Part shown: positions 711-35,948 of the stretch, in pieces | Numbering within the stretch: position 1 is the first letter of the stretch | Layout of the letters: each line of letters starts with the position of its first letter | Source of the DNA: Acidimicrobiia bacterium | Lineage (GTDB): Bacteria > Actinomycetota > Acidimicrobiia > Acidimicrobiales > AC-14 | Direction of reading: 5' to 3' | NCBI GenBank assembly: GCA_023264995.1 | Contig: JAHFUR010000039.1 | Location: 1 to 40,647, forward strand | Length of the DNA: 40,647 nucleotides | Notes under the pieces: generated by a model | Database searches by the model: none | Seen by the model: the letters and a program-made list of their open reading frames with translations, nothing else | What the model was told of the DNA's origin: nothing | Made by a program: the position numbers and the translations under genes

Positions 711-1556
711 GTGACGGCCCGCCGGCTCCCACTCCTCCTCCCGCTCCTACTCGTCGCGGCACTGGCGCTGTCGGCGGCGCCGGCCGGGTCACTCCCGAAC
801 ACCTGCCCCACCTCCGGCCCGGACGCGGGCGTCGTCACCATCACCGAGCCGCCGGCCGGCGCCACCTTCGCCGGGCAGGTGACCGTGCGGGGGAAGGCAT
901 CAGTGGCCGGCGGCTTCACCCGGGTGGAGCTGTTCGTGGGCGACTCGCTCAAGGACTTCCAGCTCTTCGACCCGCCGAGGACCGACGCCGACTACCTCCT
1001 CCGCTTCGACGTGGCCAGCATCGCCTCGGCCAAGGCCACGCTCGTCGTCGTGGCCTGCGGGGCCCGGCCGGGCGCCTCGGTCCGGGGCATCGCGTCGGTC
1101 GACATCGCCGTCGACCGGGCCTCGGTCACCACCGCCCCGCCGGTGACCTTCACCGAGGTGGCCCGAGGCGACGACCGGCCGGGCACCGAGGCTCGGACCG
1201 GGCCGGCGTGGGTCGGGGCCGCCTTCGGCCTGGCCGGCCTGGCCGGGTTGGTGGCCGCCACCCGGGTCAGAGGGGCTCGGAAGCGCCGTCCCACGGGGCC
1301 GGTGGCGGGCCGCTCGGGCCCCGGTCCCCGCTCGAAGGGCCGCTCGGGCCCTGCCCCCCGCTCAGAGGGCCGCTCGGGCCCACCAGCTCGTCCCAGTCGG
1401 GTTCGTCGACGTGGCGGGCGGGCCGTGGCTCCGCCGGCCGCTCCCGGGCCTCGAGCAGAGGAGGAGTGGCCGACGCTGGCCCGCCGGCCGCCACCGCCGG
1501 CGGGCCGGAGCGACCCCTCTGGCGGCGCCGGCGGAGGGCCTGGCCGGCGACGATGA
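711..1556 (+). CDS. Secreted/membrane-anchored Ig-like protein, basic C-terminal tail
   Basis: A 281-residue protein of unknown function starting at GTG 711. An N-terminal signal peptide (basic MTARR, then a leucine/alanine core ending near PAGS) is followed by a beta-rich domain (residues ~38-115, GVVTITEPPAGATFAGQVTVRG...) resembling Ig-like adhesion or sortase-protein folds. A linker follows, then a transmembrane helix at ~166-184 (GAAFGLAGLAGLVAA) and an Arg/Pro/Gly-rich tail of about 95 residues. This predicts an extracellular domain anchored at its C-terminal end. The tail overlaps the 3' end of the convergent YfhO-like gene for 290 bp and includes a 30-bp repeat. The part up to about residue 190 looks like a real protein; the tail may simply be an ORF extending through the opposite gene. 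It lies 14 bp after the preceding gene. Confidence 0.7.
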   Translation: MTARRLPLLLPLLLVAALALSAAPAGSLPNTCPTSGPDAGVVTITEPPAGATFAGQVTVRGKASVAGGFTRVELFVGDSLKDFQLFDPPRTDADYLLRFDVASIASAKATLVVVACGARPGASVRGIASVDIAVDRASVTTAPPVTFTEVARGDDRPGTEARTGPAWVGAAFGLAGLAGLVAATRVRGARKRRPTGPVAGRSGPGPRSKGRSGPAPRSEGRSGPPARPSRVRRRGGRAVAPPAAPGPRAEEEWPTLARRPPPPAGRSDPSGGAGGGPGRRR

Positions 1557-4398
1557 GCAAGGTGGCGGCCGTGATGAGGCGGCCGGTGGCGGCAGCCGGC
1601 GGCCGGTGGTACTCGAGGGTGACCACGTGGTCGCCGGCGTCCACCGGCACACCGAGGAAGGCGCCGTCGGCCTCCACCACCGGGGTCTTGACGCCGTCGA
1701 CGCGGGCTTCCCATCCGGGGAACCAGGCCTCGGCCACGACCACCAGGGCGGGCTTGGCGCCGGCGGTGCGGATCCGCCACCGGCCGGGGCCGGGCTGTGA
1801 GGGCGTCACCGTGGTCGTCGCCGGCGGGTCGACGGCCACCGGGTCGTAGATCGGCGTGAACGCGGCCGACCGGTCGCGGCGCAGCGTGCCGGCCACCAGC
1901 AGGTCGCCCGGCTGGTCCACCGAGTGGCCCACCACCAGGCGGGGGACGCGCTCGGCTGCGCAGCCGGGGCAGGTGAGCACGAACGCGTACTCCTTCCCGG
2001 CCGACCCGGCGATGGGGTCGAAAGTGAAGGCCACGAAGCCGTTCTCGTCGACCCCGACGGCCTTGGCCCGGGCCAGCTCCGGCCCGAGCGAGGTCCCGCC
2101 CGGTAGGACCTCGCGCAGCACGACCTCGGCCCGGTCGGGCAGGCGGTCGAAGTAGGCGGCGATCCCCTGCAGGTGGTCCGCGGTCGACCGGAAGACGGCT
2201 CCGACGCCGTCGCTGATGTTGACCAGGTCCACGCCAGCGAAGAGGGTGCTGACCCAGGAGTGGAGGCCGCAGGCCACGCCGAGCTCGCTGGCCAGGCCCG
2301 GGTCGAGGCTGGCCCCCGAACCGTCGGCGCACGGGGCGAGCGAGCGGACGTCGACCACCGTCGTCGCCGTGAGCGCGGCCGAGCCGGCCGGCGAACCGGT
2401 GAACACCCCGACGTTACGGTGGGCCAGGGCGATGGCCAGCTCAGGGGTGAGGTCGCTCCCGGCCATGGCCACGGTGTGGTTGTAGGCCCGGACCATCGGC
2501 AGGGCCCGCGGGTTGGCGGCCAGCTCGATGGTCGGGACCGCTTCGGCTGCCGTGCCCAGGTCGGTGGGCTTCTCGGTGACCTGGTAGGCCGTCGCCGACA
2601 GGCCGTAGGCCCGCTCGCGGTAGGCGTTCGGGGTCAGGAACGGCTCGGCAGTGAGCCGCCAGATCTGCTTGCTGGCCACGAAATGGGGCCAGCCCACGGT
2701 GAGGTTGCGGCCGGTGTCGAGCAGCGAGTTGACCGCCGCCGGCTGGACTTGGGTCGGCGCGACCCGGGCCTTGCCCGGCACAGATGCCAGCGTGGCGACG
2801 ACCTCGCGGTAGGCGGCCGCCGACGCCGGCGGGCGGATGCGGTAGTAGGAACGGTAGGGCCACACGTCGACCAGGAAGGCGCCGACCACGGCCAGGGCGA
2901 GGGCCGAGGCCAGGGCGGCGGGGAGGGCGGCCGGGCTCGACCGGGCGCGCCGGCGCTCGGCCCACTCCTCGGCCAGGGCCACCGGGTAGGCGGCACCGAG
3001 GGCCAGGGCCAAAGGGGCGACGGTGTAGAAGCGCGGGAACCGGAGGCTCGCGAAGAGCGGGACGACCTTCTGAAGGGTGACGAACGGGGTGAGGTACGGG
3101 ACGGCGGCGAGGAACGCGAAGGCCGAGCCGAGGCAGAGCGGCGCCCACCGGCCCAGGCGCAGCGGGCGCAGGAGGGCGCCGACGAGGAGGCCGGCGGCCA
3201 GGCCGGCGACCACGAACGGGAACACCTGGGTGCGCGACGCCGGCCCGCTCGACGCCAGGGGCACCGCCCCGGTCGACAGCCAGATGCCCAGGGCGGAGGA
3301 CAGCAGGACCGCTGTGAGCGTCCCGTCGTGGTCACGCCGGGAGAGGAAGGCGACGGTGACGAGCGTGAGGGCCAGGCACGCCCAGCCGAGGTGGAAGAAC
3401 AGTGGGAGCAACCCGGTCCGGTTGAACCCGACCGCACCGGTGAGCGCGGCGCTGCGGCCGAAGAACACGCCCAGCTCCCGGCCGACCCGTGCCCCGCTCC
3501 CGTTGAACAGTTCGCCCTGCACCAGTTCCGGCGGCGAGAGGATGAACGACTTTCCCAGGCTGGCGAAGGGCAGGAGCCAGTAGGCGGTGGATCCCACGGC
3601 CACGGCGACGACGGCCGCGGCCCGGGCCACCAACCGGGCCAGGCCGGCCTCGTTCCGGCCGATGCCGGACCGACCCGCCTCGACGGCCAGGAGGCACCCG
3701 CACAGCAGGGCCAGGCCGATGGCGTACTCGGCCTGCATCAGGACGGCGAAGCCGGCGAGGAGCCCCGACACGGCCAGGTAGCCCGGTCCCTCGCCGCGGA
3801 AGCCCTTCCGCAGGGCCCACACCAGCCAGGGTGCGGCGGCCATCACGCCGATGGTGGGCTGGGAGCCGGCCAGGGCGCCGTGGGAGACCACGATCGGTTG
3901 CAGCGAGAAGAGCACGCCGGCGGCCAAGGCGGCGGGGAAGCTGCGCCACAGCGACCGGGCCAGCACGAACGCCCCGCAGGCCCCGAGGACCTGGAAGCCG
4001 AGGACACCGAGCTTCACGGCCACGTCCGGCCCGAGGGCGGTGGCCGGGGCGAGGAGGAGGAAGATCGGCAGGGTGGGCGTGACGGCCCACATGGGCGCGC
4101 CGGCCCAGAGGTCGGGGAGCCAGTACGGAACCCGGCGGTCGGCGCCCAGGTGGTCGAGGGCCATGCGCACGTAGAGCGAGATGCCGGGGCCGTCGAGGAC
4201 CAGGGCGCCGCCCGACCACACGCCCGAGAAGCCCAGCACGGCGAACACGATGACGGCGACGGCCAGCAGCCGCCGGTGCCGCCGGGCCCAGGGCACGATG
4301 CGCCGCCGGCGCCGGGCGGCGACGGGCCGGCTGGCCCGGCGGACGCGCTCGGCCTCGCCGTGGTCGGTCTTCACCCGCAGGGGAAAGTCGAGCGCCAT
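1267..4398 (-). CDS. Large YfhO-like polytopic membrane protein (GT-C-like)
   Basis: A 1043-residue integral membrane protein. After a basic cytoplasmic N-terminus (~45 residues), about a dozen hydrophobic segments fill residues ~45-510, followed by a large extracellular region and a last transmembrane helix near residue 960. The C-terminal stretch AEAWFPGWEARVDG...GVPVDAGDHVVTLEYHRP is a hallmark of the bacterial YfhO family (PF09586). YfhO proteins are GT-C-fold-like and linked to glycosylation of lipoteichoic acid or other envelope polymers using lipid-linked sugars; the substrate here is unknown. The cytoplasmic tail after the last helix is Pro/Gly-rich with GPSGP decapeptide repeats and overlaps the convergent gene. 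The ATG at 4398 lies 52 bp from a divergent methyltransferase operon, suggesting a shared promoter region and an envelope glycan/lipid context. Confidence 0.85.
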   Translation of the reverse strand: MALDFPLRVKTDHGEAERVRRASRPVAARRRRRIVPWARRHRRLLAVAVIVFAVLGFSGVWSGGALVLDGPGISLYVRMALDHLGADRRVPYWLPDLWAGAPMWAVTPTLPIFLLLAPATALGPDVAVKLGVLGFQVLGACGAFVLARSLWRSFPAALAAGVLFSLQPIVVSHGALAGSQPTIGVMAAAPWLVWALRKGFRGEGPGYLAVSGLLAGFAVLMQAEYAIGLALLCGCLLAVEAGRSGIGRNEAGLARLVARAAAVVAVAVGSTAYWLLPFASLGKSFILSPPELVQGELFNGSGARVGRELGVFFGRSAALTGAVGFNRTGLLPLFFHLGWACLALTLVTVAFLSRRDHDGTLTAVLLSSALGIWLSTGAVPLASSGPASRTQVFPFVVAGLAAGLLVGALLRPLRLGRWAPLCLGSAFAFLAAVPYLTPFVTLQKVVPLFASLRFPRFYTVAPLALALGAAYPVALAEEWAERRRARSSPAALPAALASALALAVVGAFLVDVWPYRSYYRIRPPASAAAYREVVATLASVPGKARVAPTQVQPAAVNSLLDTGRNLTVGWPHFVASKQIWRLTAEPFLTPNAYRERAYGLSATAYQVTEKPTDLGTAAEAVPTIELAANPRALPMVRAYNHTVAMAGSDLTPELAIALAHRNVGVFTGSPAGSAALTATTVVDVRSLAPCADGSGASLDPGLASELGVACGLHSWVSTLFAGVDLVNISDGVGAVFRSTADHLQGIAAYFDRLPDRAEVVLREVLPGGTSLGPELARAKAVGVDENGFVAFTFDPIAGSAGKEYAFVLTCPGCAAERVPRLVVGHSVDQPGDLLVAGTLRRDRSAAFTPIYDPVAVDPPATTTVTPSQPGPGRWRIRTAGAKPALVVVAEAWFPGWEARVDGVKTPVVEADGAFLGVPVDAGDHVVTLEYHRPPAAATGRLITAATLLIVAGQALRRRRQRGRSGPPAVAAGGPASATPPLLEARERPAEPRPARHVDEPDWDELVGPSGPLSGGQGPSGPSSGDRGPSGPPPAPWDGASEPL
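1307..1380. repeat. Three copies of a 14-bp core at exact 30-bp spacing
   Basis: The 14-mer GGGCCGCTCGGGCC occurs at 1307, 1337 and 1367. The period is exactly 30 bp (10 codons), so the reading frame is kept. The repeat lies in the overlap of two convergent genes. On the plus strand it encodes RSGP(G/A/P)-type decapeptides; on the minus strand it encodes GPSGP-type decapeptides resembling collagen-like Gly-Pro tails. The 16 bases between cores are only partly conserved. Confidence 0.85.
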
Positions 4399-4450: not shown

Positions 4451-5239
4451 ATGCCCGCCGCCGCCCGTGTACAACCCGCGGGGGAGTGGTCAGGTGCCGA
4501 CCCCCGCTACCGCGGCTACCGGGCGGCCAAGGCCGGCGCCCGGCTCGACCATCGCGTCCGCCTCGCCGTCGATCTGGTCCCCGCCGGTGCCCGCCGGGTG
4601 CTCGACCTCGGCGCCGGCGACGGCTTCGTCACCTCGTGCCTGGGGTCGGCGGCGGGCGCCCGGCTGGCCGTCGCCGTCGACGTGGGCGCTCCTGAGCCGC
4701 TCGTGACGCCGGCGTCCGACGTCGCCCACGTCACCGCCCGTCTCCCCGGCCCCCTGCCGTTCCCCGCCGGCGCCTTCGACGTCGTCGTCACCCTCGAGAC
4801 GATCGAGCACGTCCTCGACCCCGACGGCCTGCTCGAGGAGGCCCGCCGGGTGCTGGCGCCCGGCGGCACCCTTGTGCTCTCCACCCCTCGGCTCGACTCG
4901 TTCCTGGTCGTCGCCGCCCTGCTCCTCGGCTTCCAGCCGCCGGCGGTGGAGTGCTCGTCCCGCCGGCGCTACGGCAGCCCGTTCGGCGAGCAGCGCCCGT
5001 CGGGCCACGTCCACCTCTTCACCCGCCGGGCTCTGGCCGAGGCCCTGGCCGCCAACGGCTTCCGGCTCGAGGAGTACCGCGAGGCCCGGTTCAGCTCGAG
5101 CTGGTGGCAGGCCGTGCGTTCCGACCGCCGGCCCCGCCCGCTCGACCTGGCCCTTCGGGCCGCGTTCGCCGTCTACGACCTGGTGCCGTTCCGGAAGGAC
5201 GTGATGGTGGTCCGGGCCACGCGGGCCGGGGGGGACTGA
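4451..5239 (+). CDS. Class I SAM-dependent methyltransferase
   Basis: A 262-residue cytosolic methyltransferase. The SAM-binding motif I is VLDLGAGDGF (~residues 53-62), the acidic end of beta2 is AVAVDVG, and motif post-I/IV is FDVVVTLETIEHVLDPDGLLEEARRVLAPGGTLVLSTPR (split here into its recognisable parts TIEHVLD and RVLAPGGTL). This is the Methyltransf_11/23 layout, often used on small molecules, lipids or sugars. No membrane segment. ATG 4451 was chosen because the open frame further upstream runs antisense to the YfhO-like gene; no clear ribosome binding site is visible. It is the first of three consecutive methyltransferase genes with overlapping ends, divergent from the YfhO-like gene. 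Substrate unknown. Confidence 0.85.
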   Translation: MPAAARVQPAGEWSGADPRYRGYRAAKAGARLDHRVRLAVDLVPAGARRVLDLGAGDGFVTSCLGSAAGARLAVAVDVGAPEPLVTPASDVAHVTARLPGPLPFPAGAFDVVVTLETIEHVLDPDGLLEEARRVLAPGGTLVLSTPRLDSFLVVAALLLGFQPPAVECSSRRRYGSPFGEQRPSGHVHLFTRRALAEALAANGFRLEEYREARFSSSWWQAVRSDRRPRPLDLALRAAFAVYDLVPFRKDVMVVRATRAGGD

Positions 5240-6045
5240 TGCCCGACCAGATCGGCTACCAGCAGGCCGCCTACGACGACCACTACCCGAAGATGGCCGA
5301 GGCCGTCCGTGACCAGCTGGCCCACCCGCTGCTCAACTCCTTCTACGACCGCCTCGCCGGCCTGGTCGTCGATGGCCTCCCCCCCCGAACTGGTGACGAT
5401 CGAACACGTCCCGGCCTGTCGAACCGTCACCGGTTGTTGGAAGCGGGGTGCGGGGAGGGCCTGCTGGCGTCGGCGGTGCGGCGGGTGGCCGACCGCCGGG
5501 GGGTCGACATGGCGTATACGGGCACCGACCTCAGCGCGGCGGGGATCGACCTGGCCCGCAGCGTGGTGGCCGGCGACTTCGTCCGGGGCGACGCCGTCGA
5601 GGTGGTGGCGGGCATGGCCGGCGGGAGCCAGGACCTGGTCTGGGCCAAGAACCTGCTCCACCACCTGGAGGACCCGGCCGAGTTCCTCCGCCAGGCGCTG
5701 CGGGTCGTCGGGGTTGACGGCCGGGTGGTGGTCATCGAGCCTCGGATGTGGTGCCCGGTCCACTGGGTCAACCTGATGTGGTTCCGCCAGGAGCGCTTCC
5801 TGTTCCGGGGCTACCGGCGCAACGTGGCCGCGTTCGCCGCGGCGCGGGCCACCGTCGTGTCGGCCACCGAGTTCGGGTGGCTCCCCTACGAGCTGGCCCT
5901 GGCCACCCGGTTCGGCCTGCCCCGCCGGCTGCTGTCGATGGGGCCGGGGCCGGCCCTCGATGGCATCACGTCGCTGGACGACCGGCTCACCGCCCGGCTC
6001 CCCGACCTCGCCCTGTACATGGTCACCGTCCTCCGTCCCCAGTGA
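5239..6045 (+). CDS. Class I SAM-dependent methyltransferase
   Basis: A 268-residue methyltransferase. The N-terminal helix region (YDDHYPKMAEAVRDQLAHPL) leads into motif I LLEAGCGEGLLA (~residues 60-71) and the acidic loop YTGTDLSAAGIDLAR. Motif IV is DLVWAKNLLHHLEDPAEFLRQ, and post-motif VVIEPRMW follows. The C-terminal part (residues ~165-268) has aromatic and hydrophobic helices and could shape a lipophilic substrate pocket. The ATG overlaps the stop of the preceding gene (TGATG, 5237-5241), so translation is coupled. A run of eight C near 5380 lies in a poorly conserved loop but does not break the frame. Substrate unknown; a tailoring role on a lipid or glycan is an inference from the neighbours. 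Confidence 0.83.
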   Translation: MPDQIGYQQAAYDDHYPKMAEAVRDQLAHPLLNSFYDRLAGLVVDGLPPRTGDDRTRPGLSNRHRLLEAGCGEGLLASAVRRVADRRGVDMAYTGTDLSAAGIDLARSVVAGDFVRGDAVEVVAGMAGGSQDLVWAKNLLHHLEDPAEFLRQALRVVGVDGRVVVIEPRMWCPVHWVNLMWFRQERFLFRGYRRNVAAFAAARATVVSATEFGWLPYELALATRFGLPRRLLSMGPGPALDGITSLDDRLTARLPDLALYMVTVLRPQ

Positions 6046-6674
6046 GGCAACAGCCTCTCAACCCCTGGCTGGAGGAGCGGCTCGACCGGTGGGCCGGTAC
6101 CGGCCCGGTGCTCGACCTGGGCTGCGGCCGGGGCTACTGGATGGAGCACCTGGCCGCCAAGGGCGTGCCGGCGGTGGGCCTGGAGCATGCCCTCGACCGG
6201 GCCGTGCTCGCCGGCCACCACGGCCCGGTTGTGTCGGGCGATGCGGCCCGCCTCCCGTTCGCCGACGCCAGCGTCGGCCTGGTGTGGTGCATCCACGTGC
6301 TCCACCACCTGCCCGAGCCGGCCCTGGTGCTGGCCGAGGTGGCCCGCGTCCTCCGTCCCGGCGGGGCGCTCGTGCTGGCCGAGACGGTGGAGGACAACCC
6401 GGCTCTGCGCCTGGGCCGGCGCATCCACGGATCCTGGGACGGGGTGGGCATCCATGCCCGCTTCACCGGGGCGACGCTCCTCGACGGCGTGGCCGCCGCC
6501 GGCCTCGAGACGGTCGAGCATCGCCAGCACAGCCTGGCGTCGTTCGCGGCGTGGGCGTTGCCGGCGCCGGCCGGCAGGGCGGTCTGGCGCGGCCTGTCGG
6601 CCGTCGAGTCCCGGCTGCCGGCGACCCTCAGTCGGTGGGGGGCGCACCTGGAGTGCCTGGCCCGGCGTCCCTGA
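6042..6674 (+). CDS. Class I SAM-dependent methyltransferase (Methyltransf_11 type)
   Basis: A compact 210-residue methyltransferase beginning at GTG 6042, which overlaps the stop of the preceding gene (GTGA). Motif I is VLDLGCGRGYW (~residues 22-32), followed by the acidic residue in VGLEHALDRA. The Asp in GDAARLPFADASVGLVW marks motif II/IV, HVLHHLPEP is the post-motif, and RVLRPGGALVLAE is motif VI. This is the standard Methyltransf_11 fold. It is the last gene of a three-methyltransferase operon. Its final 47 bp overlap the 3' end of the convergent Clp-N regulator gene. Substrate unknown. Confidence 0.83.
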   Translation: MRQQPLNPWLEERLDRWAGTGPVLDLGCGRGYWMEHLAAKGVPAVGLEHALDRAVLAGHHGPVVSGDAARLPFADASVGLVWCIHVLHHLPEPALVLAEVARVLRPGGALVLAETVEDNPALRLGRRIHGSWDGVGIHARFTGATLLDGVAAAGLETVEHRQHSLASFAAWALPAPAGRAVWRGLSAVESRLPATLSRWGAHLECLARRP

Positions 6675-26629: not shown

Positions 26630-26659
26630 ATGGGGACAGGCAAGGCGGGAGGGAAGCTC

Positions 26660-29600
26660 GTGGCAGCGGCGACGCCAGTTCGGCCCATGACGGTGCGTGC
26701 CGTGCTGGTCCACGTGGGCATCGCCTTGGCCGGCCTCGCCGTCACCGTGGGGGCGGCGATCTGGAGCCTGAGCGCCGACGCGCACTGCACGGCGCCGCCC
26801 GGCCCGACCCGCACCGCCGCCGTGCGGTTTGCCGGCACCGCGGACCGAGTCGCACAGGCAAAGAGCCAGTGCCCGCAGACGGTGCCCGCCGGCTGGACCC
26901 CTCGCTGGCAGGCGGCCCACGACGCCGGCGTGCTGCACCGGGCCGCGCTCGTCATCGTGGCCGGCGCGCTGACCCTGCTGTGCGGGTGCCGGCTGGCGAA
27001 CGGGATCGTGCGCCGCACCGTCACCCTGGAAGTCGGCCGACGGCTGGCTTTCGGGGTCCTGGCGGTGGCGGCCGTGAACCTCTTCGAGGACATCGTGCTG
27101 GAGGCGATCCTGCGCGACACCCGCTCGGTCCCGGGGTGGGTGATCGGGTTGGTGACCGCGCTGGCGGTGACAAGGGTCCTGGCCCTGGTGGTGATCGGGA
27201 CCTACGCGGTGGCCGGGTTGGCGGCCGGGGTGGCAGTCCTGTTCCGGTCGCTCCTCGGGCTCTCGCTGCTGCCGCAGTTCGACCGGCCCCTTCGGTCGGT
27301 GACCGACCCGGTGGGCGGTATGGCCCGCCGCCTCGAGGATCTGGGCGCCGAGGCACCCCTGCTCGCGCCGCGAGCCGAACGCTTTCTCGCTCCCGACGGC
27401 AGCCCGTGGCGCTCGACCGACGCAACCGATGACGACGACGCCGTCGGCGTCTGCTTCTCCGGTGGAGGGATCCGAGCGGCCAGCTACGCCCTCGGTGCGC
27501 TCCAGGGCTTCCTGGCCGCGGAGGTGCTGTCGGAGGTCCGGTACCTCTCGACGGTCTCGGGCGGTGGCTATACGGGGACGGCCTGGCAGATCGCCACCCG
27601 GGCCGCCTACGACGACCGCCAGGTCGTGCGCCACGGCGTGCCGGGCCCCGGCCAGCGCCCGGCCTCCGTGGCCGTCAACGGCCAGGCCGATACGCCCCCC
27701 CTGGGCGTGTGCTCGCCCGAGGCCAAATGGCTCCAGACCTACGCCCGGTTCCTCTGGCCGCCCGTGCGGACGGCCGAAGGCCATCCCGGCGGGGACACCT
27801 GCCCGGGTGGTCACCACCATCAGGACGGCCGTTGGGCCTCCACCCTGGCCTTCCTAGCCGTGGCGTGGAACGCATTGCGCGGCGTCGTGTTCAACGCCAG
27901 CCTCCTCGTCACCCTCCTCTTCGTCGTCAGCCGGCCTCTCGGTTGGCTGACCCGCACCTGGGCGTTCGGCGGCCTGGGCCCCGACATCGGGATGCTGCGG
28001 CCCTTCTACTCCTGGCAACTGGTGGCGCTCGGATTGCAGACCCTGGCCGTGGTCGTCCTCGCCTTCCCCGTGCTCTGGCGGTGGTGGGGGAAGATGGCGG
28101 CGTCGAAGCTGCGCCGGGTGATCATCGGCGCGGGGACGACCGGCTTCGCGGCGTGGAGCACCTGGACGGTCCTCCTCGTGGACCATCCGATGAGGCTCCA
28201 TCCCCGGGGGAGCACGATGGCCGTGCCGATCGGCTGGTGCTTCGTGATCGTCGGCACGGTCGCATTCGTGACGTGGGCGCGAATGGACCGCCGGTCGGCT
28301 GCCCCCGGCTTCGGCATCGCGGTCATCGGGCTCGGGGTGGCGAAGCTGTGGCTCGATGGAGGGTTCCACACCGGTCCACACGGCCAGGTCGAGCTCGACG
28401 CGGTCAGCGCCGTCTTGCGCATCTGGGCGCTGCTCGGCATGGCCCTGCTGATGCTGGCGGTGCTCAGGCTCCTGGTGAACCCGGGCGACGGCGGCCGTCG
28501 GCAGTCGCGGTTCGTGTTCATCGGTCTGTTGGTGCTGGGCCTGGCCATGACCGCTCTGACCGTCGTGCTCCTCGCTCCTCGCATGGGATGGTGGTCGGTC
28601 CTGGTGGTGGCCGGCCCGCTGGCCATGGGTGGGTACTGCGCAAACCTGCTGACCCGCCTGCCCCCGGACGGCGTGGCCTTCGTGGGCGGGCCGGTGAACG
28701 AGGCCCGGACGATGTTCGCCCTGCTGGCCGCCCTGACCGGGACGATCATGCTCGCTGCCGCCATGTGGGCCCACCGGTGGATCGAGGTCCGCTGGGCGAT
28801 CAGCGATTTCACCCGTTGGCTGGTCCTCGCCGGGGCCGTCCTGGTCGTCTACGCCGTCGTCGACCAGAAGTGGTGGTCGCCGCACGGGTTCTACAAGCGC
28901 CGCCTCTCGGGCACCTTCAGCCCGGTGCGCAGCGCCGAGGTCGACGCCGACGGCCAGAGCATGGTCACGGCGCTCCCCTTGCGGATCAGGACCACCCTCC
29001 ATACCTGGGCGCGGCGGGTCCCGGGCCAGCCCGAGCTCCTGGTCTGTGCCGCCGCCTACGACACCGAGCGCATCTCCCCCGAGGACAACCAGGCCCTGCC
29101 GTTCGTGTTCACCGCCGACTATGTCGGGAGCGCCGACGTGGGTTTCGCCCGCAGTCGCGACTTCGACGCCGTCCTTGGTCGCCAGAACGAGGACTACGGC
29201 ACGCTCCGTGCCGCGGCGACCATCTCCGGGGCCGCGGTCTCGCCCGCCCTCGGGGCGGTCCGGCTGGCATCGCTCTCCCAGATCATGGCCTTCTTCAACC
29301 TCCGGCTCGGCGTCTGGTTGCCGAGCCCGTCGTCGGTCAACGAGCTACGGGCCTTGATGGAGGACCGGCTCAACAGCGACGACACCCTGCGGTGGGTACG
29401 GACCCGCCGCCTCGGGTACCTGCTCAAAGAGCTGATCGGGCGGTATGACACCGAGGACCGGTTCCTGTACGTGACCGATGGAGGCCAGTTCGAGAACCTC
29501 GGCCTCTACGAGCTGCTGGTCCGCAAGTGCCGGCTCATCTACGCGTTCGACGCCTCAGCCGACAAGGGCTCCGTCCGGTCGGTGGTCCACAGCATGCGGA

Positions 29601-30151
29601 TGGCTCACGATCGCCTCGGTGTCGACTTCGGCCCGGTCGGGGGCGGGCCCTTGTCCACCGCCGACCCCAAGGACCTGCCCACCGAGTGGCGGCTCCACCT
29701 GCTCCGCCAGTTGGGCGAGAAGGCGAAGGGCCCGGAGGACGCGAGCTGGCCGACCGGACGGCTCTGGGCCGCCGCCGCCGCCGTGTTCGAGGCCTGGTAC
29801 CCGCCCGAGGTGGCCGGCGGCGAGCGCACGCGGGCGACGGTCGTGTACTGCCAGGCCCGGTTGGCCAGGGACAAGGATGGCGCGCTCCCCGACGCCGTCG
29901 TCGCCAGCTACGCCAAGCTCGACCGGAAGTTCCCGAACAACGGCACGGGCGACCAGTTCATCGACGACGCCCAGTTCGACGCCTACGTCCACCTCGGGCG
30001 GTGGGCGGCCGCCGACGCGCTGCGCCGGCACCCGGTCACCGAGGAGCGGGCGCCCGCTCCGAAACCGGCTCGAACAAGTGCCAACGGTGATGGGCCAGCG
30101 CTGGCGCCACCCGTCGCGGCACGAACCGTTCCCACGACGACAGCCGGGTGA
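26660..30151 (+). CDS. Multispanning patatin-like phospholipase
   Basis: A 1163-residue membrane protein with a split patatin domain. Four or so transmembrane helices lie in residues ~5-215. The first half of the hydrolase follows: oxyanion loop CFSGGGIRAAS (~264-274) and nucleophile Ser300 in YLSTVSGGGYTG, where the first Gly of the usual GxSxG is Thr. About eight more hydrophobic segments (~400-750) are inserted before the second half, which ends the catalytic dyad with Asp in TDGGQFENLGLYELL (~939). Substrate is probably a membrane lipid. GTG 26660 is preferred over ATG 26630 because GGGAGGGA lies 5 nt upstream and a -10-like box abuts the ATG. The 3' end overlaps the convergent gene by 116 bp. 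Confidence 0.85.
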   Translation: MAAATPVRPMTVRAVLVHVGIALAGLAVTVGAAIWSLSADAHCTAPPGPTRTAAVRFAGTADRVAQAKSQCPQTVPAGWTPRWQAAHDAGVLHRAALVIVAGALTLLCGCRLANGIVRRTVTLEVGRRLAFGVLAVAAVNLFEDIVLEAILRDTRSVPGWVIGLVTALAVTRVLALVVIGTYAVAGLAAGVAVLFRSLLGLSLLPQFDRPLRSVTDPVGGMARRLEDLGAEAPLLAPRAERFLAPDGSPWRSTDATDDDDAVGVCFSGGGIRAASYALGALQGFLAAEVLSEVRYLSTVSGGGYTGTAWQIATRAAYDDRQVVRHGVPGPGQRPASVAVNGQADTPPLGVCSPEAKWLQTYARFLWPPVRTAEGHPGGDTCPGGHHHQDGRWASTLAFLAVAWNALRGVVFNASLLVTLLFVVSRPLGWLTRTWAFGGLGPDIGMLRPFYSWQLVALGLQTLAVVVLAFPVLWRWWGKMAASKLRRVIIGAGTTGFAAWSTWTVLLVDHPMRLHPRGSTMAVPIGWCFVIVGTVAFVTWARMDRRSAAPGFGIAVIGLGVAKLWLDGGFHTGPHGQVELDAVSAVLRIWALLGMALLMLAVLRLLVNPGDGGRRQSRFVFIGLLVLGLAMTALTVVLLAPRMGWWSVLVVAGPLAMGGYCANLLTRLPPDGVAFVGGPVNEARTMFALLAALTGTIMLAAAMWAHRWIEVRWAISDFTRWLVLAGAVLVVYAVVDQKWWSPHGFYKRRLSGTFSPVRSAEVDADGQSMVTALPLRIRTTLHTWARRVPGQPELLVCAAAYDTERISPEDNQALPFVFTADYVGSADVGFARSRDFDAVLGRQNEDYGTLRAAATISGAAVSPALGAVRLASLSQIMAFFNLRLGVWLPSPSSVNELRALMEDRLNSDDTLRWVRTRRLGYLLKELIGRYDTEDRFLYVTDGGQFENLGLYELLVRKCRLIYAFDASADKGSVRSVVHSMRMAHDRLGVDFGPVGGGPLSTADPKDLPTEWRLHLLRQLGEKAKGPEDASWPTGRLWAAAAAVFEAWYPPEVAGGERTRATVVYCQARLARDKDGALPDAVVASYAKLDRKFPNNGTGDQFIDDAQFDAYVHLGRWAAADALRRHPVTEERAPAPKPARTSANGDGPALAPPVAARTVPTTTAG

Positions 30152-31772
30152 TCCGGTCCTCCATCGTGGGGTCGTCGCCCTTCAGGTAGGGGAGGATCGA
30201 CCACACCCACGCCTTGCCCTCCGACGCCTGGCCGCGCCGCAGGATCTTGGCGATGGGCACCGACGTGTCGGGGAAGGGGGGGATGTCGAAGAGGCCGGTG
30301 CCGGAGGCGTGCAGCCCGAGGCCGGCGGCCGCCGCCGTGGCCGCGTCGCGATCGAGGGCGTGCTCGTTGAGCTCGGACCGGAACAGCTCCTTGTGCCAGA
30401 GCCGGGCCCGTAGCTGCATGAACACGTTCTTGTTGGGGACACAGCACAACACGCCCTTCTCGGCCCACCGGGCCTGGGCGGCGAGGACGGCCCAGGGGTC
30501 GTCGAACCACCAGAGGGCGGCGAAGCTGAAGGCCAGGTCGTACCGCTCGGGGAGCAGCTCGGGCCAATCGGACGGGTCGGGACCGTCGACGAGATGGAGC
30601 GCCGGGGCGAGGCCAAGCTCGCGCCATTGCCGGCCGACCGCCTCGAGCCGCTCCGCGTCGTAGTCGACGAGACCGACCCGCAGCCCGGCCCGGGCACAGA
30701 ACACGGCGTCGAGCCCGGGGAACCCCATCATCCCGAAGGCCGGCGCGTGGAGCACGCTCGTGGCACCGGTCTTCTCGATGGCCGCCTCGAGGACCTCGCG
30801 CAGGGCGAAGCGCTCGTAGACCGTGCCCAGGCCCTCGTCGGGGTCGTCGACGTAGTTGTGCCAGTCGAACCCGTGGGCCGTCGACCGCTGCTCGGCCAGC
30901 CAGCGGCCGGTTGCGGGTACGCCGATCTCGGCGGCCACCTCCGGTGCCCACCCCAGGTCGGCGGCGGCCCGGCCCCAGTCGTAGGCCCGGTCGCGAGTGA
31001 GCACGTCGACGGAGTGGCGGCCGAGGAACCGGGCGGCGGCCGCTGGCACGCCGAAGGACGGCGACCGCAAACGCGCACCCTGGGCCAGGCCCTCGAAGAT
31101 CCGGGCCGCCGGCGTGGCCTCCGGCCCGCCCAGCACATAGATCCCGTCGCCCCGGTGGCCGAGGAGCACGAGGGCGCGGACGAGGTCGTCGACGTGGAGC
31201 AGGTGGATGCGGTTGCGGCCGTCGCCCGGGAACCAGCGCACGCCCCGGTTCATGAGCTTGACGGCCCGGGGCAGCATGCCGTGCTCGTCGCCCGGCCCGT
31301 AGGTGATGGTCGGCCGCACGATCACCGTCGGCCCGCCGGCCCAGCCCGCGACCAGGTCCTCGGCGGCCAGCTTGGCTCGGCCGTAGGCCGACACCGGCGC
31401 CGGCGGTGACGCGTGGTCGGCGGGCCACGCCTGGTGCCAGCCGTACACCGACGTCGAGCTGACGTAGACGACGCGTGTGCCCGGTGCGAGCACGGACAGG
31501 AGGTTGGCGGTGCCGGTGACGTGGGTGGCGTCGAGCTCGGCATCGTCGCCCCGGTAGCTCCCGGCCAGGTGGAACACCACTTCGGCGCCGGCCGCGGCGC
31601 GCCGCAGGCTCTCGAGGTCGCCCACGTCGCCTAGGACGACCTCGGCACCCGGGGGCCGCCGCCGGCCGCTGGTACCCGGTCGGACGAGCGCCCGGGCGTC
31701 GGCGCCATCGGCGACAAGGGCGGCGACGAGGTGGCGGCCGATGAACCCCGACGCGCCAGTGACGAGGATCAT
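30036..31772 (-). CDS. NAD-dependent epimerase/dehydratase fused to methyltransferase
   Basis: A 578-residue fusion. Residues 1-~310 are an extended short-chain dehydrogenase of the NAD-dependent epimerase type: VTGASGFIGRHL (GxxGxxG), the Ser/Tyr/Lys set in YVSSTSVYG and AYGRAKLAAEDL, and TITYGPGDEHG. Residues ~325-560 are a class I methyltransferase-like domain with FGMMGFPGLD (weak motif I), VGLVDYDAERLEAV and YDLAFSFAALWWFDDPWAV. The order oxidoreductase-methyltransferase suggests consecutive steps on one sugar or polyketide-like substrate. Its ATG overlaps the stop of the radical SAM gene (ATGA). The 3' end overlaps the patatin gene by 116 bp. The methyltransferase half is diverged and could be structural; substrate unknown. 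Confidence 0.85.
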   Translation of the reverse strand: MILVTGASGFIGRHLVAALVADGADARALVRPGTSGRRRPPGAEVVLGDVGDLESLRRAAAGAEVVFHLAGSYRGDDAELDATHVTGTANLLSVLAPGTRVVYVSSTSVYGWHQAWPADHASPPAPVSAYGRAKLAAEDLVAGWAGGPTVIVRPTITYGPGDEHGMLPRAVKLMNRGVRWFPGDGRNRIHLLHVDDLVRALVLLGHRGDGIYVLGGPEATPAARIFEGLAQGARLRSPSFGVPAAAARFLGRHSVDVLTRDRAYDWGRAAADLGWAPEVAAEIGVPATGRWLAEQRSTAHGFDWHNYVDDPDEGLGTVYERFALREVLEAAIEKTGATSVLHAPAFGMMGFPGLDAVFCARAGLRVGLVDYDAERLEAVGRQWRELGLAPALHLVDGPDPSDWPELLPERYDLAFSFAALWWFDDPWAVLAAQARWAEKGVLCCVPNKNVFMQLRARLWHKELFRSELNEHALDRDAATAAAAGLGLHASGTGLFDIPPFPDTSVPIAKILRRGQASEGKAWVWSILPYLKGDDPTMEDRITRLSSWERFVPRRVAPALAHHRWHLFEPVSERAPAPR

Positions 31773-32920
31773 GCGCCGCTCGAGGCCACGACCGGGATCC
31801 GCTTCGGCGCCTTCACCATGCCGGTGGCCATGCGCACCGCGGCCGCCGGCTCAGCCAGCAGGTTGGTGTATGCCGCGTTGGCCAGGGGACAGGCACAGCG
31901 CCGCTCGCGCATCCACGTGCGGAACTCCTCGGCCGCCGGCGAGAACCACACCTTGCGGAAGTCGAAGCCGTGCTCGCGCAGGTTCCCGAACGAGCGGGCC
32001 AGGACGCAGCACGACCAGACGTCGCCGTCGGCGCCGATGTGGACGGAGAGGAAGCCGGCGTGGCAGACGGGCATGGCGGTGACGTCGCCGTCGAGGAACC
32101 GGGTGACGCGGGCGTAGTACTCGTTGCGGATCGTGCGGGCCATGCGGGCGACGGCGCCACTGGCCGCAGCCTCGGCGTCGAGCACGGCGGCCGCGGCCCG
32201 GCCGAAGGTCGACGACCCGGGGGTGATCCCCGTGCCGATGGTCTGCAGCTCGACGCGCTCCTCGGCGGGTTCGGCGATGTAGGAGTCGGCGCCCAGCTTG
32301 GAGAGGCCCTGGGCGATGGCCGGGAAGTCGGCCTCGTTCTCGTTGGACACGACAGTGTGGACGCCCACGGTGAGGTTGGGCATGTTGAGTGCCCGCAGGC
32401 CGGCCAGGGTGTCCATGAGGCGGGTGTACGAACCCTCGGCGCCGCGGATGACGTCGTGGCGCTCGGGCACGTGGTGGTCGATCGACAGGTTGATGACGAC
32501 CTGGGTGCCCGGGCTACCGGTGCAGATGCGCTCGACGCCCGCTACCACCCGTTTGGTGAACCACCCGTTGGTCGGGATGTTGACGACGGCCGGCTGGCAG
32601 ATGCGCACCGCGGACAGGACGATGTCGGGCAGGTCACCCCGCAGGAACGGCTCGCCGCCGCTGAAGGTCATCCACGCCGGCGCCCGGCCGAGCGACTCGA
32701 AGACCTTCGTCCACTCGTCGGCCTCGAGCTCGACGACTTTGCGGTCATAGACGTTGCACGTGAGGCACTTGAAGTTGCAGCGGAAGTTGGTGCTGACCGT
32801 GACGTTGACCGGGAGCAGCCGGGGCCAACCCCGGGCCCGCCAGGAGCTAGCTGTGCCGAAGGCCCAGGCTGTGCGCGTCAGCCGTCGGAGCCTTGGTGCT
32901 CTCGACCATCGCCCAGACAT
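31769..32920 (-). CDS. Radical SAM protein with SPASM-like cysteines
   Basis: A 383-residue radical SAM enzyme. The 4Fe-4S cluster motif CNFKCLTC gives Cys48, Cys52 and Cys55 (CX3CX2C), followed by FSGGEPFLRGDL (SAM-binding GGE) and the barrel strands NIPTNG and VINLSIDHH. Near the C-terminus AMPVCHAGFLSVHIGADGDVWSCCVLAR and RRCACPLAN carry a Cys set and the GxV-type strand of a SPASM/twitch auxiliary cluster domain. Such proteins modify peptides, sugars or cofactors; no precursor peptide is seen nearby. ATG 32920 lies inside the end of the upstream GT2 gene (74-bp overlap), and its stop overlaps the epimerase start. Middle gene of the three-gene operon; substrate unknown. Confidence 0.9.
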   Translation of the reverse strand: MSGRWSRAPRLRRLTRTAWAFGTASSWRARGWPRLLPVNVTVSTNFRCNFKCLTCNVYDRKVVELEADEWTKVFESLGRAPAWMTFSGGEPFLRGDLPDIVLSAVRICQPAVVNIPTNGWFTKRVVAGVERICTGSPGTQVVINLSIDHHVPERHDVIRGAEGSYTRLMDTLAGLRALNMPNLTVGVHTVVSNENEADFPAIAQGLSKLGADSYIAEPAEERVELQTIGTGITPGSSTFGRAAAAVLDAEAAASGAVARMARTIRNEYYARVTRFLDGDVTAMPVCHAGFLSVHIGADGDVWSCCVLARSFGNLREHGFDFRKVWFSPAAEEFRTWMRERRCACPLANAAYTNLLAEPAAAVRMATGMVKAPKRIPVVASSGA

Positions 32921-33833
32921 GGTTTTCCTTCCCCTGGAGGTAATCGAGCCGGGCGAGCAGCCGGGCCCAGGCCTCCATGCCCACTGCTGCAGCGGTCCAG
33001 GCTAGCTGCCGGGGCCGGAGGCCCTTGGGCTCAGTGCGGATATCGGCCCACAGCTCGCGGCCGAGCAGGCCGAGGCGCAGGCTGGGGACGACGTAGTGCT
33101 GGCGCCGGCGCAGCCAGAGATGGCCGGTGTGGATCTGGCGGCGCTGGTGCACGAAGTCGGCGGTCGTGCCCGGGCCGCGGTTCCACACGATGGCGTCGGG
33201 CACATACACGGACCGCCAGCCGGCGCCTTCGAGCAGGGCCTGGAAGCACGCCTCGTCGACGGAGGTACCGGGGAGGGTGACGACCGCCTCGGCCCGCAGG
33301 GCGATCATCTCCCCGAGCTTGGGCCGGTGGAGGGCCAAGCGGTGATGGAGGCGCCAGAGCAGGTGGGCGGCGTGGCCGATGGCCGAGGACGTCGCGTTCA
33401 CCGGCATCGGCCGGCCCCCGGCCAGGCCCACACCCGGCTCGGCCAGCGCGTGGACGACCTTGGCGATGGCGCCGCGCTCGGGGAGCACGTCGCCCGACAC
33501 CACCACCACGACAGGAGTGCCGAGCCGGGCCAGTCCGAAGTTGACGGCCGACACCTTCCCTGACCGCTCCTGCTCGACGTAGAGCCGTACCGTGGCCGGG
33601 TGCGCCGCGGCGATGCGGGTCACGGTGGCGATGGTGCCGTCGTCGCACCCGCTGGCTACCACCACGATCTCGCCGACGTCGGGCTCGTCGAGCAGCCGGC
33701 CCAGCAGGGGGCCGATGTTGGGGCCGTCGTTGTGGGTCGGCACGACGATCCCGGCCGTGCCGGTCCGCGCCGTCTCGGTGCGGGCCGGCAGCGCGGCCTC
33801 CAGCCGCAATTCGGTTTTCAGCTGCTCGGCCAC
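32847..33833 (-). CDS. Family 2 glycosyltransferase
   Basis: A 328-residue GT-A glycosyltransferase. The nucleotide-sugar domain begins GTAGIVVPTHNDGPNIGPLL (~residues 22-41), continues with VGEIVVVASGCDDGT, GKVSAVNFGLARL and VVVVSGDVLPE in the place of the DxD loop, and ends with acceptor-side segments DEACFQALLEGAGWRSVYVPD, WNRGPGTTADFVHQRRQIHTGH. A C-terminal helix around LAWTAAAVGMEAWARLLARL could attach it to the membrane. GTG 33833 has a G-rich Shine-Dalgarno four bases upstream, and TAGTAT (33857-33862) is a fair -10. First gene of the operon with the radical SAM and epimerase-methyltransferase genes, pointing to a glycan or glycosylated metabolite. Donor and acceptor unknown. Confidence 0.87.
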   Translation of the reverse strand: MAEQLKTELRLEAALPARTETARTGTAGIVVPTHNDGPNIGPLLGRLLDEPDVGEIVVVASGCDDGTIATVTRIAAAHPATVRLYVEQERSGKVSAVNFGLARLGTPVVVVVSGDVLPERGAIAKVVHALAEPGVGLAGGRPMPVNATSSAIGHAAHLLWRLHHRLALHRPKLGEMIALRAEAVVTLPGTSVDEACFQALLEGAGWRSVYVPDAIVWNRGPGTTADFVHQRRQIHTGHLWLRRRQHYVVPSLRLGLLGRELWADIRTEPKGLRPRQLAWTAAAVGMEAWARLLARLDYLQGKENHVWAMVESTKAPTADAHSLGLRHS

Positions 33834-34658: not shown

Positions 34659-35948
34659 ATGCGGCGTTCCCTGGTCGTTGGTGTGCTCCTGTTCCTGGGG
34701 GCGACGGTCGTCAACCCGGCGGTGGCCGACCCGCCGGCGCCGCCGGCGAGCGTGATCCGGTCATGGAACGACACCGCTCTGCGGACGGTCCGGCTGAAGA
34801 GCGCCAGTGACGCGCAGGCGGCCCGGCTCTACGCGATGGTCAACGTGGCCATGTACGACGCGGTGAACGGCCTGGCCACGAACGCGGCCAACCGGCGGGG
34901 AGAGGCCCTGGTGCCGCCCAGCCGGTCGGCTGTCGGCAGCCCGGTGGCCGCCGCCGCCGGCGCGGCCCACGACGTGCTCGCCGGCCTGTACCCGGACCAA
35001 GCCGCGGCGTTCGACGCCGAGCTGGCCTCGGATCTCGCGGGGATCACGCCGGCGCTCGCCGCGCTGGGGCGGAGCTGGGGCGGCCGGGTGGCCGCCGCGG
35101 TCCTGGCCGCCCGGGCCGACGACGGCTCCAGCCCCAACGCGTCGCAGCCCGGGGGATCCGGCCCCGGCCAGTTCACGGCCAGCTGGTCGGGCGTCCAGTT
35201 CCGCAACCTCAAGCCGTTTGCCATCGCCGACCCGGCGGCGTACGTGAGCCCCGGGCCGCCGGCGTTGACCAGCTTGGACTACGCGGCCGCCTTCGCCGAG
35301 GTGAAACTGCTCGGCAACGCGGCCATCCCCGACGCCGCCAAGCTGGCCACCTTCCAGTACTGGAGCCTCGGCGGGGGGACGAGCCAGCCGCCCGGGGCCT
35401 GGGTGCAGGTTGCATCCGCGGTGTCGGCCAGCCGTTCCCTTTCGCTCGACGACACGGCCCGCCTGTTCGCCCTCGAGAGCATGGCCATGGCCGACACCGT
35501 GGCGCCGACCTACGAGACGAAGTTCGAAACGCACTCCTGGCGCCCGCAGACGGCGATCCGAGGCGCGGAAAGCGACGGGAACCCGGACACCGTCGCCGAT
35601 CCCACCTGGTCGGCCCGGGCCGGGAGCGTGGGGTCCTCGCCTGAGCACTGGTCGGGCCATAGTTCCTTCAGCGCCGCCGCGGCCACGGTGCTCAAGGATT
35701 TCTTCTGCCGGGACGCCATCCCGTTCAGCCTCGTCACCGATTCATCCCCGGGCGGTGCGGCGCGCAGCTACCCGAGCTTCTCCGCAGCCATGGTCGAGGC
35801 CGGCCGGTCGCGTGTGTACGGCGGGTTCCACTTTGAGTTCAGCAACCAGGCCGGGTTGGCCGCCGGGCGCGACATTGCCGCCGAGGTGGTCGCCCACAAG
35901 CTCCTGGTCCTACGAGGGACGACGCACGTGGGCGACTGCCCGCTCTAG
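34659..35948 (+). CDS. Vanadium-dependent haloperoxidase, secreted
   Basis: A 429-residue exported enzyme of the vanadium haloperoxidase/PAP2 superfamily, which oxidises halides with hydrogen peroxide. The signal peptide (RRSLVVGVLLFLGATVVNPAVA) precedes an all-helical body. All vanadate-site residues can be placed with family spacing: Lys288 and Arg295 (KFETHSWR, spacing 7), Ser-Gly-His 332-334 in EHWSGHS, and Arg385 and His391 (SRVYGGFH, spacing 6). Acid phosphatases share this site, but the length and the N-terminal helices favour the haloperoxidase-like group. ATG 34659 is preferred to GTG 34650 because GGAGG sits 9 nt upstream. A terminator-like hairpin follows. Chloro- or bromoperoxidase specificity cannot be told; phosphatase activity is possible. 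Confidence 0.9.
   Translation: MRRSLVVGVLLFLGATVVNPAVADPPAPPASVIRSWNDTALRTVRLKSASDAQAARLYAMVNVAMYDAVNGLATNAANRRGEALVPPSRSAVGSPVAAAAGAAHDVLAGLYPDQAAAFDAELASDLAGITPALAALGRSWGGRVAAAVLAARADDGSSPNASQPGGSGPGQFTASWSGVQFRNLKPFAIADPAAYVSPGPPALTSLDYAAAFAEVKLLGNAAIPDAAKLATFQYWSLGGGTSQPPGAWVQVASAVSASRSLSLDDTARLFALESMAMADTVAPTYETKFETHSWRPQTAIRGAESDGNPDTVADPTWSARAGSVGSSPEHWSGHSSFSAAAATVLKDFFCRDAIPFSLVTDSSPGGAARSYPSFSAAMVEAGRSRVYGGFHFEFSNQAGLAAGRDIAAEVVAHKLLVLRGTTHVGDCPL

What the first reader, a model, noticed from the sequence alone, without database searches (positions are those of the whole stretch)
30036..33833. Coupled GT2, radical SAM/SPASM and epimerase-methyltransferase fusion operon
Three genes overlap (74 bp and 4 bp) and encode a glycosyltransferase, a radical SAM enzyme and a two-domain oxidoreductase-methyltransferase. 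The set could build an unusual modified sugar or glycolipid. I do not recognise a described pathway with this gene order, and there is no visible RiPP precursor, so this is the best candidate for an undescribed system here.
Basis: partly seen in the sequence, partly recalled or inferred. Interest (0 to 1): 0.6.

Follow-up and report, generated by a model that had tools for sequence, protein, structure and literature searches.

The report
Conserved glycosyltransferase–radical SAM sugar module
Three overlapping genes encode a sugar-transferring enzyme, a radical-chemistry enzyme and a fused sugar reductase/methylating enzyme; they are the actinobacterial form of a gene partnership of unknown product found in many bacteria and some archaea, which probably makes an unusual sugar on a lipid carrier.

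Summary
In detail: GT2 (32847-33833, -), radical SAM/SPASM (31769-32920, -) and an SDR-methyltransferase fusion (30036-31772, -) overlap by 74 and 4 bp. The same order, overlaps and fusion recur in another genus of the family and in another order of the class. In 41 relatives searched, GT2 and rSAM occur in the same two genomes.

The trio belongs to a much wider, unnamed set. rSAM relatives (about 40-51% identity) occur in Cloacimonadota, Calditrichota, Chloroflexota, Eisenbacteria, Omnitrophota and some archaea. The same narrow GT2 family lies next to the rSAM in 56 of 80 loci and is in 23 of 24 rSAM genomes tested. The fused MT domain exists elsewhere as a stand-alone protein. In some lineages the neighbours are polyprenyl-phosphate-sugar-synthase-like proteins (in three genomes fused to the GT2), GT-C transferases, polyprenyl synthase, UbiA, geranylgeranyl-reductase-family or isopentenyl phosphate kinase genes.

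Best reading: an uncharacterised module that builds and modifies a lipid-linked or surface sugar. Chemistry, substrate and product are inferred. No NCBIfam model fits the rSAM, and no paper in my searches describes the set.

The parts
32847..33833 (-). GT2 glycosyltransferase, GTG start at 33833 (frame open to 33932)
   Evidence: PF13641 58.0 bits; 63-64% identical in L025 and L059; conserved D98, D148, PKLGE, VDE and QRRxI-x-x-GH, numbered from the 33932 start
31769..32920 (-). Radical SAM/SPASM enzyme
   Evidence: PF04055 and PF13186 above cut-off; CxxxCxxC plus five further cysteines invariant or nearly so in 76 aligned rows; predicted structure pLDDT 89.8
32847..32920 (-). 74-bp overlap of GT2 and rSAM genes
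   Evidence: Long overlaps also in L025 (146 bp) and L059 (89 bp); the rSAM N-terminus in the overlap is conserved
30888..31772 (-). SDR (epimerase/reductase-like) half of the fusion protein
   Evidence: PF01370 124.1 bits; TGASGFIG and YGRAK motifs seen in the sequence
30036..30887 (-). Methyltransferase-like half of the fusion protein; its family also occurs as stand-alone proteins of 255-300 aa
   Evidence: Iterated HMM, 15 members; class I MT fold
1267..4398 (-). YfhO-like membrane protein, possible but unproven GT-C partner
   Evidence: PF09586 29.9 bits of 28.5; homologues near the trio in L025 and L059; but found without the trio in G001, G002 and G005
5239..6674 (+). Two class I methyltransferase genes, homologues of genes beside the trio in L059; weak candidates
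   Evidence: 41-46% and 57% identical to L059 genes; Pfam Methyltransf_11

Best explanation
The trio is the actinobacterial form of an uncharacterised module for a modified, probably lipid-linked, sugar. Shown by sequence: a dedicated GT2 and a radical SAM/SPASM enzyme that occur together across bacteria and archaea, with an SDR and a distinctive methyltransferase as recurrent partners, here fused into one protein. Inferred: the GT2 attaches a sugar from an NDP-sugar to a polyprenyl-phosphate, or to a glycan growing on one; the rSAM makes a radical at a sugar carbon and epimerises, oxidises or removes a group; the SDR reduces or epimerises a keto intermediate; the MT caps a hydroxyl; a membrane GT-C then moves the product to a surface glycan or glycolipid. 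The overlaps and the fusion suggest translational coupling.
For: Trio in the same order in three genera, two orders. GT2 and close rSAM in the same 2 of 41 relatives. Narrow GT2 family directly upstream of the rSAM in 54 of 80 loci and directly downstream in 2; in 23 of 24 rSAM genomes, each at E <= 1e-115, including 8 of 9 without an adjacent copy. MT family within 11 of 80 loci and full length (E < 1e-40) in 18 of 24 rSAM genomes, including 8 of the 14 without it in the rSAM locus, against 1 of 396 genomes in the phylum draw. A DPM1/AglJ-like domain is fused to this GT2 in L140, L141 and L076 and lies within two genes of the rSAM in L066, L091, L097, L127 and L129. GT-C proteins recur. Carrier-lipid genes: polyprenyl synthases near the MT in L140-L142, UbiA in L140, L091, L097, L129, isopentenyl phosphate kinase beside the MT in L146 and L147, GG-reductase-family genes directly upstream of the rSAM in 8 Calditrichota-group loci. 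BlsE, which acts on a sugar ring (PMC3715490, abstract), is among the closest folds.
Against: No chemistry, product or carrier was shown. The carrier-lipid genes are not in the window genes I scanned, and the near GG-reductase cases come from one group. In 24 of 80 loci no GT2 is adjacent; the Methanomassiliicoccales genome (L063) lacks the GT2 altogether. Six of 24 genomes lack a full-length MT. The SDR search was generic, so some SDR neighbours may be unrelated. About half of the 80 loci are Cloacimonadota, where GT2 and rSAM simply keep one place. The YfhO-like protein of the window occurs without the trio. Peptide maturases SkfB and SuiB are as close in fold as BlsE.
Confidence: 0.5

Rival explanations
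1. The module acts on an isoprenoid lipid rather than on the sugar: the rSAM and MT modify a polyprenyl chain or ether-lipid head group, and the GT2 glycosylates that lipid.
For: UbiA, polyprenyl synthase, GG-reductase-family and isopentenyl phosphate kinase genes near module genes in some lineages; several hosts are archaea or from the FCB group, which has been proposed to make archaeal-type lipids (PMC7852524, listing with abstract and title only); GDGT-MAS is among the fold matches (Z 16.3).
Against: Fold match to GDGT-MAS is weaker than to SkfB, SuiB or BlsE; no such genes seen among the window genes scanned; the term search in PMC7852524 found no radical SAM, glycosyltransferase or methyltransferase; GT-C and DPM1-like neighbours fit sugar transfer as well.
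Confidence: 0.2
2. A soluble NDP-sugar or small-molecule pathway, as in antibiotic clusters: the rSAM tailors an NDP-sugar or nucleoside, the GT2 attaches it to a secreted metabolite.
For: BlsE and DesII folds match (Z 22.7 and 19.1); SDR and MT are typical deoxysugar tailoring enzymes (recalled).
Against: Very wide distribution incl. archaea and a fixed chromosomal place in Cloacimonadota; membrane GT-C and DPM1-like neighbours. PKS/NRPS genes were not searched for.
Confidence: 0.15
3. A RiPP pathway of mycofactocin type: the rSAM modifies a peptide and the GT2 glycosylates it.
For: Best NCBIfam match of the GT2 is MftF (48.5 bits); SPASM rSAMs are often peptide maturases (recalled); SkfB and SuiB are the closest folds.
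Against: Scores far below cut-offs (MftF 48.5 of 280; mycofactocin rSAM 49.2 of 265). No convincing conserved short ORF of 20-120 aa near the trio: one 11-residue match at E 0.01 between L025 and L059, none with the window. RRE domains were not specifically tested.
Confidence: 0.07
4. The three genes are only loosely related neighbours in a general polysaccharide region; order and overlap reflect descent, not joint function.
For: Patchy occurrence (2 of 10 genomes of the family incl. the window); many loci are from one phylum.
Against: GT2 and rSAM co-occur even where not adjacent (8 of 9), MT likewise (8 of 14), across phyla and domains.
Confidence: 0.08

Closest known systems
BlsE, cytosylglucuronate decarboxylase (blasticidin S pathway)
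   Same: Radical SAM core and similar fold (Z 22.7, 291 residues, rmsd 3.4); CxxxCxxC and GGEP motifs; BlsE acts on a sugar ring (PMC3715490, abstract)
   Different: 16% identity; NCBIfam BlsE 30.0 bits of 400; no GT2 partner known to me (recalled)
SkfB and SuiB peptide maturases
   Same: Closest folds, Z 23.8 and 23.0
   Different: 20% and 14% identity; no peptide precursor found near the trio
Mycofactocin system (MftC rSAM, MftF GT2)
   Same: Also pairs an rSAM/SPASM with a GT2; MftF is the best NCBIfam match of the GT2
   Different: Both far below cut-off (49.2 of 265; 48.5 of 280); no precursor found
CsbB-YfhO / GtlA-GtlB three-component glycosylation (PMC5836110, passages)
   Same: GT2 proposed to load undecaprenyl-phosphate, membrane GT-C proposed to transfer outside; window and L025/L059 have a YfhO-like protein
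   Different: No rSAM, SDR or MT is mentioned in the passages seen; YfhO-like gene here is not tied to the trio
B12-rSAM / GT2 / rSAM / GT-C cassette in other actinobacterial lineages (L048-L054)
   Same: rSAM (about 28-32% identical) beside a GT2; in L050 and L052 also beside a PMT_2 GT-C
   Different: GT2 outside the narrow family here, extra B12-binding rSAM (Pfam-checked in L050 and L047 only); no SDR or MT of this kind seen in those stretches; the one rSAM checked, L050, does not match the SPASM model

Membership tests
Radical SAM superfamily | CxxxCxxC motif and core domain | tested here: met
   PF04055 51.2 of 29.5 bits; C48, C52, C55 in all 76 rows
SPASM rSAM | SPASM domain model | tested here: met
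   PF13186 38.2 of 21.5 bits
SPASM rSAM | Canonical seven-cysteine auxiliary pattern (recalled) | tested here: not met
   Only five conserved auxiliary cysteines: C286, C304, C305, C342, C344
Mycofactocin system | MftC and MftF equivalogs | tested here: not met
   TIGR03962 49.2 of 265; TIGR03965 48.5 of 280 bits
Mycofactocin or other RiPP | Precursor peptide next to the rSAM | tested here: inconclusive
   No convincing conserved short ORF near the trio in three genomes; an unconserved or distant precursor cannot be excluded
BlsE cytosylglucuronate decarboxylase | NCBIfam equivalog TIGR04466 | tested here: not met
   30.0 of 400 bits
ScmE (SynChlorMet cassette) | NCBIfam equivalog TIGR04250 | tested here: not met
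   64.3 of 400 bits
HpnA hopanoid-associated sugar epimerase | NCBIfam TIGR03466 | tested here: not met
   102.1 of 367.65 bits for the fusion's SDR half
Extended SDR family | Epimerase domain, glycine-rich motif, YxxxK | tested here: met
   PF01370 124.1 of 20.9 bits; motifs seen in the translation
Class I methyltransferase | Fold | tested here: met
   Model m5436d9ef562b, best match CmoM E 4.4e-9
Class I methyltransferase | Pfam model above cut-off; usual GxGxG motif I (recalled) | tested here: not met
   Methyltransf_11 18.6 bits in the full protein, 20.6 for the domain alone, cut-off 21.2; motif region reads HAPAFGMMGFPG
GT2 glycosyltransferase | Pfam model and acidic catalytic residues | tested here: met
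   PF13641 58.0 of 27 bits; D98, D148, E208, D226, E227 conserved in 56 of 56 rows
CsbB-YfhO type system | GT2 genetically tied to a YfhO-like GT-C | tested here: inconclusive
   YfhO-like gene on the trio's contig in L025 and L059 and in the window (about 26 kb away), but also in G001, G002, G005 without the trio
Activity on a lipid-linked sugar | Enzyme assay | not testable with these tools
   Needs biochemistry

The most novel reading that the evidence does not exclude
A radical-SAM-made, methylated sugar on an isoprenoid carrier is a shared and so far unseen cell-envelope building block of many deep bacterial lineages and some archaea, made by one GT2-rSAM pair that has stayed together across domains; the window shows a condensed three-gene form.
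Probability: 0.2. Interest if true: 0.85.

Novelty: new variant of a known kind. Interest (0 to 1): 0.62.

Why it matters
The sugar-acting radical SAM enzymes I know of come mostly from antibiotic pathways (recalled). A conserved GT2-rSAM pair in bacteria and archaea, with methyltransferase and reductase partners and, in some lineages, carrier-lipid genes around it, points to an undescribed envelope sugar or glycolipid. It gives named gene sets, including one in a named strain (Ktedonobacter robiniae: rSAM in L136, GT2 elsewhere in that genome), on which substrate and product can be tested.

Tried and rejected
Mycofactocin or another RiPP: disfavoured on scores and lack of a convincing conserved short ORF. 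HpnA/hopanoid: rejected on score. Defence: PADLOC pVip (viperin) matches the rSAM core at 36.4 bits and nothing matches the GT2 or fusion. Virus carriage: one viral-contig scan found no relative. Empty site: of the two flank genes tried, one (34659-35948) has a 73% homologue in G001, but no other window gene called by my gene finder matches that 15.5-kb stretch, so no insertion site could be shown. YfhO-like gene as an obligate partner: rejected, since it occurs without the trio. FCB archaeal-lipid paper: a term search found no radical SAM, gene cluster, glycosyltransferase or methyltransferase. The first genome-contig scan used poor patterns and found nothing; the second found 155 relatives, best 80 kept. 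Gene calls in the loci come from my own simple caller; in the window it missed the fusion gene, whose 116-bp convergent overlap exceeds the caller's limit. Rows dropped: one search left out rSAMs under 350 aa and L056, L059; the tree left out those under 330 aa and L059. The 24 genomes were chosen by me from the 80 loci for spread, and include all ten stand-alone-MT loci, so 8 of 14 and 8 of 9 are the fairer counts. Families that VIA-align did not list are not excluded by it.

Full report
What is there. The three genes are real and correctly placed. The rSAM start is supported by conserved N-termini in three genera. The GT2 starts most plausibly at the GTG at 33833. The fusion carries an SDR with its nucleotide-binding glycine motif and YxxxK, and a methyltransferase-like half that Pfam barely sees (18.6 bits, cut-off 21.2) but whose predicted structure is a class I methyltransferase.

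Distribution near the window. Among the window genome and 40 relatives, close rSAM homologues occur only in G000 and G006 (74%; the 11 other genomes listed there have matches no better than E 6e-11). The GT2 (E <= 1e-20) occurs only in the same two. The two other genomes of the genus lack both. In the order draw (397 genomes, E <= 1e-15) four match: G000, G006, G461 (46%) and G632 (30%). In the phylum draw (396 genomes, E <= 1e-20) 11 match, all but the window at 28-41% identity. In the class draw (395 genomes, E <= 1e-40) the fusion protein is found in G000 and G915 (61%). G006 and G915 carry the complete trio in the same order with the same fusion. G461 carries GT2-rSAM-SDR (36, 45 and 32% identical) without the MT match. 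The trio is patchy but present or absent as a block where tested.

A wide family. A scan of named genomes with a four-sequence rSAM alignment found 155 relatives; the best 80 were kept (L060-L139). About half are Cloacimonadota; others are Calditrichota, Chloroflexota, Eisenbacteria, Omnitrophota, Nitrospirae, a deltaproteobacterium and archaea (Methanoperedens, Methanothrix, Methanomassiliicoccales, Diapherotrites). In 76 aligned rows seven cysteines are invariant and an eighth is present in 75; A219, E220, R222, E224, L225 and T227 are invariant too. No NCBIfam model fits: the best for the window protein is ScmE, 64.3 of 400 bits. In the rSAM tree (85 rows) the window, L025 and L060 form a fully supported group on a long stem; its link to a Chloroflexota group, two of whose rows carry an adjacent stand-alone MT, is not firm (86/89). 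L055 (G461) instead groups with soil Chloroflexi rows, so the family probably entered this order more than once (inference).

Partners. With a narrow HMM of the window's GT2, a member is immediately upstream of the rSAM on the same strand in 54 of 80 loci and immediately downstream in 2; of the 54, 19 overlap and 48 lie within 30 bp. In 24 rSAM genomes that I picked for spread, the GT2 family is in 23, each at E <= 1e-115, including 8 of the 9 with no adjacent copy (one of these, L066, has it three genes away); the Methanomassiliicoccales genome (L063) has none. The MT family, iterated from the fused domain, stays at 15 members. It lies within the fetched locus in 11 of 80 loci and is full length (E < 1e-40) in 18 of the 24 genomes, including 8 of the 14 where it is not in the rSAM locus; three more have only weak partial matches and three none. 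In two Calditrichota genomes the MT cluster seems to lie about 22-25 kb from the rSAM on the same contig (equal contig lengths). In the phylum draw the MT occurs in 1 of 396 genomes, the window's own; this control is from one phylum and not matched to the 24. An SDR is within three genes in 12 of 80 loci, by a generic SDR search. The fusion in the window therefore joins two proteins that are separate neighbours elsewhere, for example in L127, L129 and L084.

Towards a function. A domain like polyprenyl-phosphate sugar synthases (in L141 it matches AglJ, an ArnC model and dolichyl-phosphate hexose transferase, all below cut-off) is fused to this GT2 in L140, L141 and L076 and lies as a separate gene within two genes of the rSAM in L066, L091, L097, L127 and L129. 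GT-C proteins recur (PMT_2 in L055; HMM hits). Near MT loci that are away from the rSAM lie polyprenyl synthases (L140, L141, L142), UbiA (L140) and, beside the MT, isopentenyl phosphate kinase (L146, 202.4 of 120 bits; L147 by HMM). UbiA also lies in L091, L097 and L129, more than three genes from the rSAM. GG-reductase-family genes are 15 of 447 genes within three of the rSAM and 4 of 623 farther ones; the 15 all come from ten loci of the Calditrichota group, in eight of which one is directly upstream of the rSAM. DUF362 (5 of 80 loci) and LPG_synthase_TM (4 of 80) proteins recur as well. None of these carrier-lipid genes was seen among the window genes that I scanned with Pfam, which were not all of them.

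Structure. The rSAM model (pLDDT 89.8) is closest to SkfB (Z 23.8), SuiB (23.0) and BlsE (22.7), then viperin-like enzymes (21.5 and below), PqqE (19.6), DesII (19.1) and GDGT-MAS (16.3). These top values are close, so fold alone does not choose between peptide, nucleotide and sugar substrates.

Judgement. That GT2 and rSAM act together is well supported by co-occurrence; that the MT belongs is supported; the SDR less so. That the product is a modified sugar on a lipid carrier is my best inference (0.5); the reaction is open. Seven literature searches aimed at the set gave no description in their listings; three others looked at neighbouring subjects. Only open-licence papers are held. Beyond listings I saw passages of PMC5836110, the abstract and outline of PMC3715490 and a term search of PMC7852524. 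I rate the trio as a new variant of a known kind, radical SAM tailoring with its own glycosyltransferase; the wide family behind it is the more interesting find.

Noticed in passing
L048-L054 (other actinobacterial lineages): Recurrent order of a long ORF like a B12-binding rSAM, a GT2, an rSAM and a membrane GT-C; all four checked by Pfam only in L050, parts in L052, L047 and L044. Looks like a parallel rSAM-GT2 glycan cassette.
   Followed up: partly
L094 and other Cloacimonadota loci: GT2-rSAM follows two short genes whose sequences look like lumazine synthase and NusB (recalled; not searched) and is often followed by a beta-propeller-like protein and a DUF4159 protein.
   Followed up: no
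window 25643-26482 (-): Matrixin (M10) type metallopeptidase, 36.1 of 24 bits.
   Followed up: no
window 34659-35948 (+): Protein with a sub-threshold PAP2 match (22.3 of 27.2 bits), 73% identical to one in G001.
   Followed up: no
window 26630-30151 (+): 1173-aa protein with many hydrophobic stretches by eye and a sub-threshold patatin match (22.9 of 27.7 bits); its 3' end overlaps the fusion gene by 116 bp.
   Followed up: no
window 4451-6674 (+): Three consecutive methyltransferase-domain genes, two of them homologous to genes beside the trio in L059.
   Followed up: partly
L145 (1-3245): Three members of the MT family in tandem.
   Followed up: no
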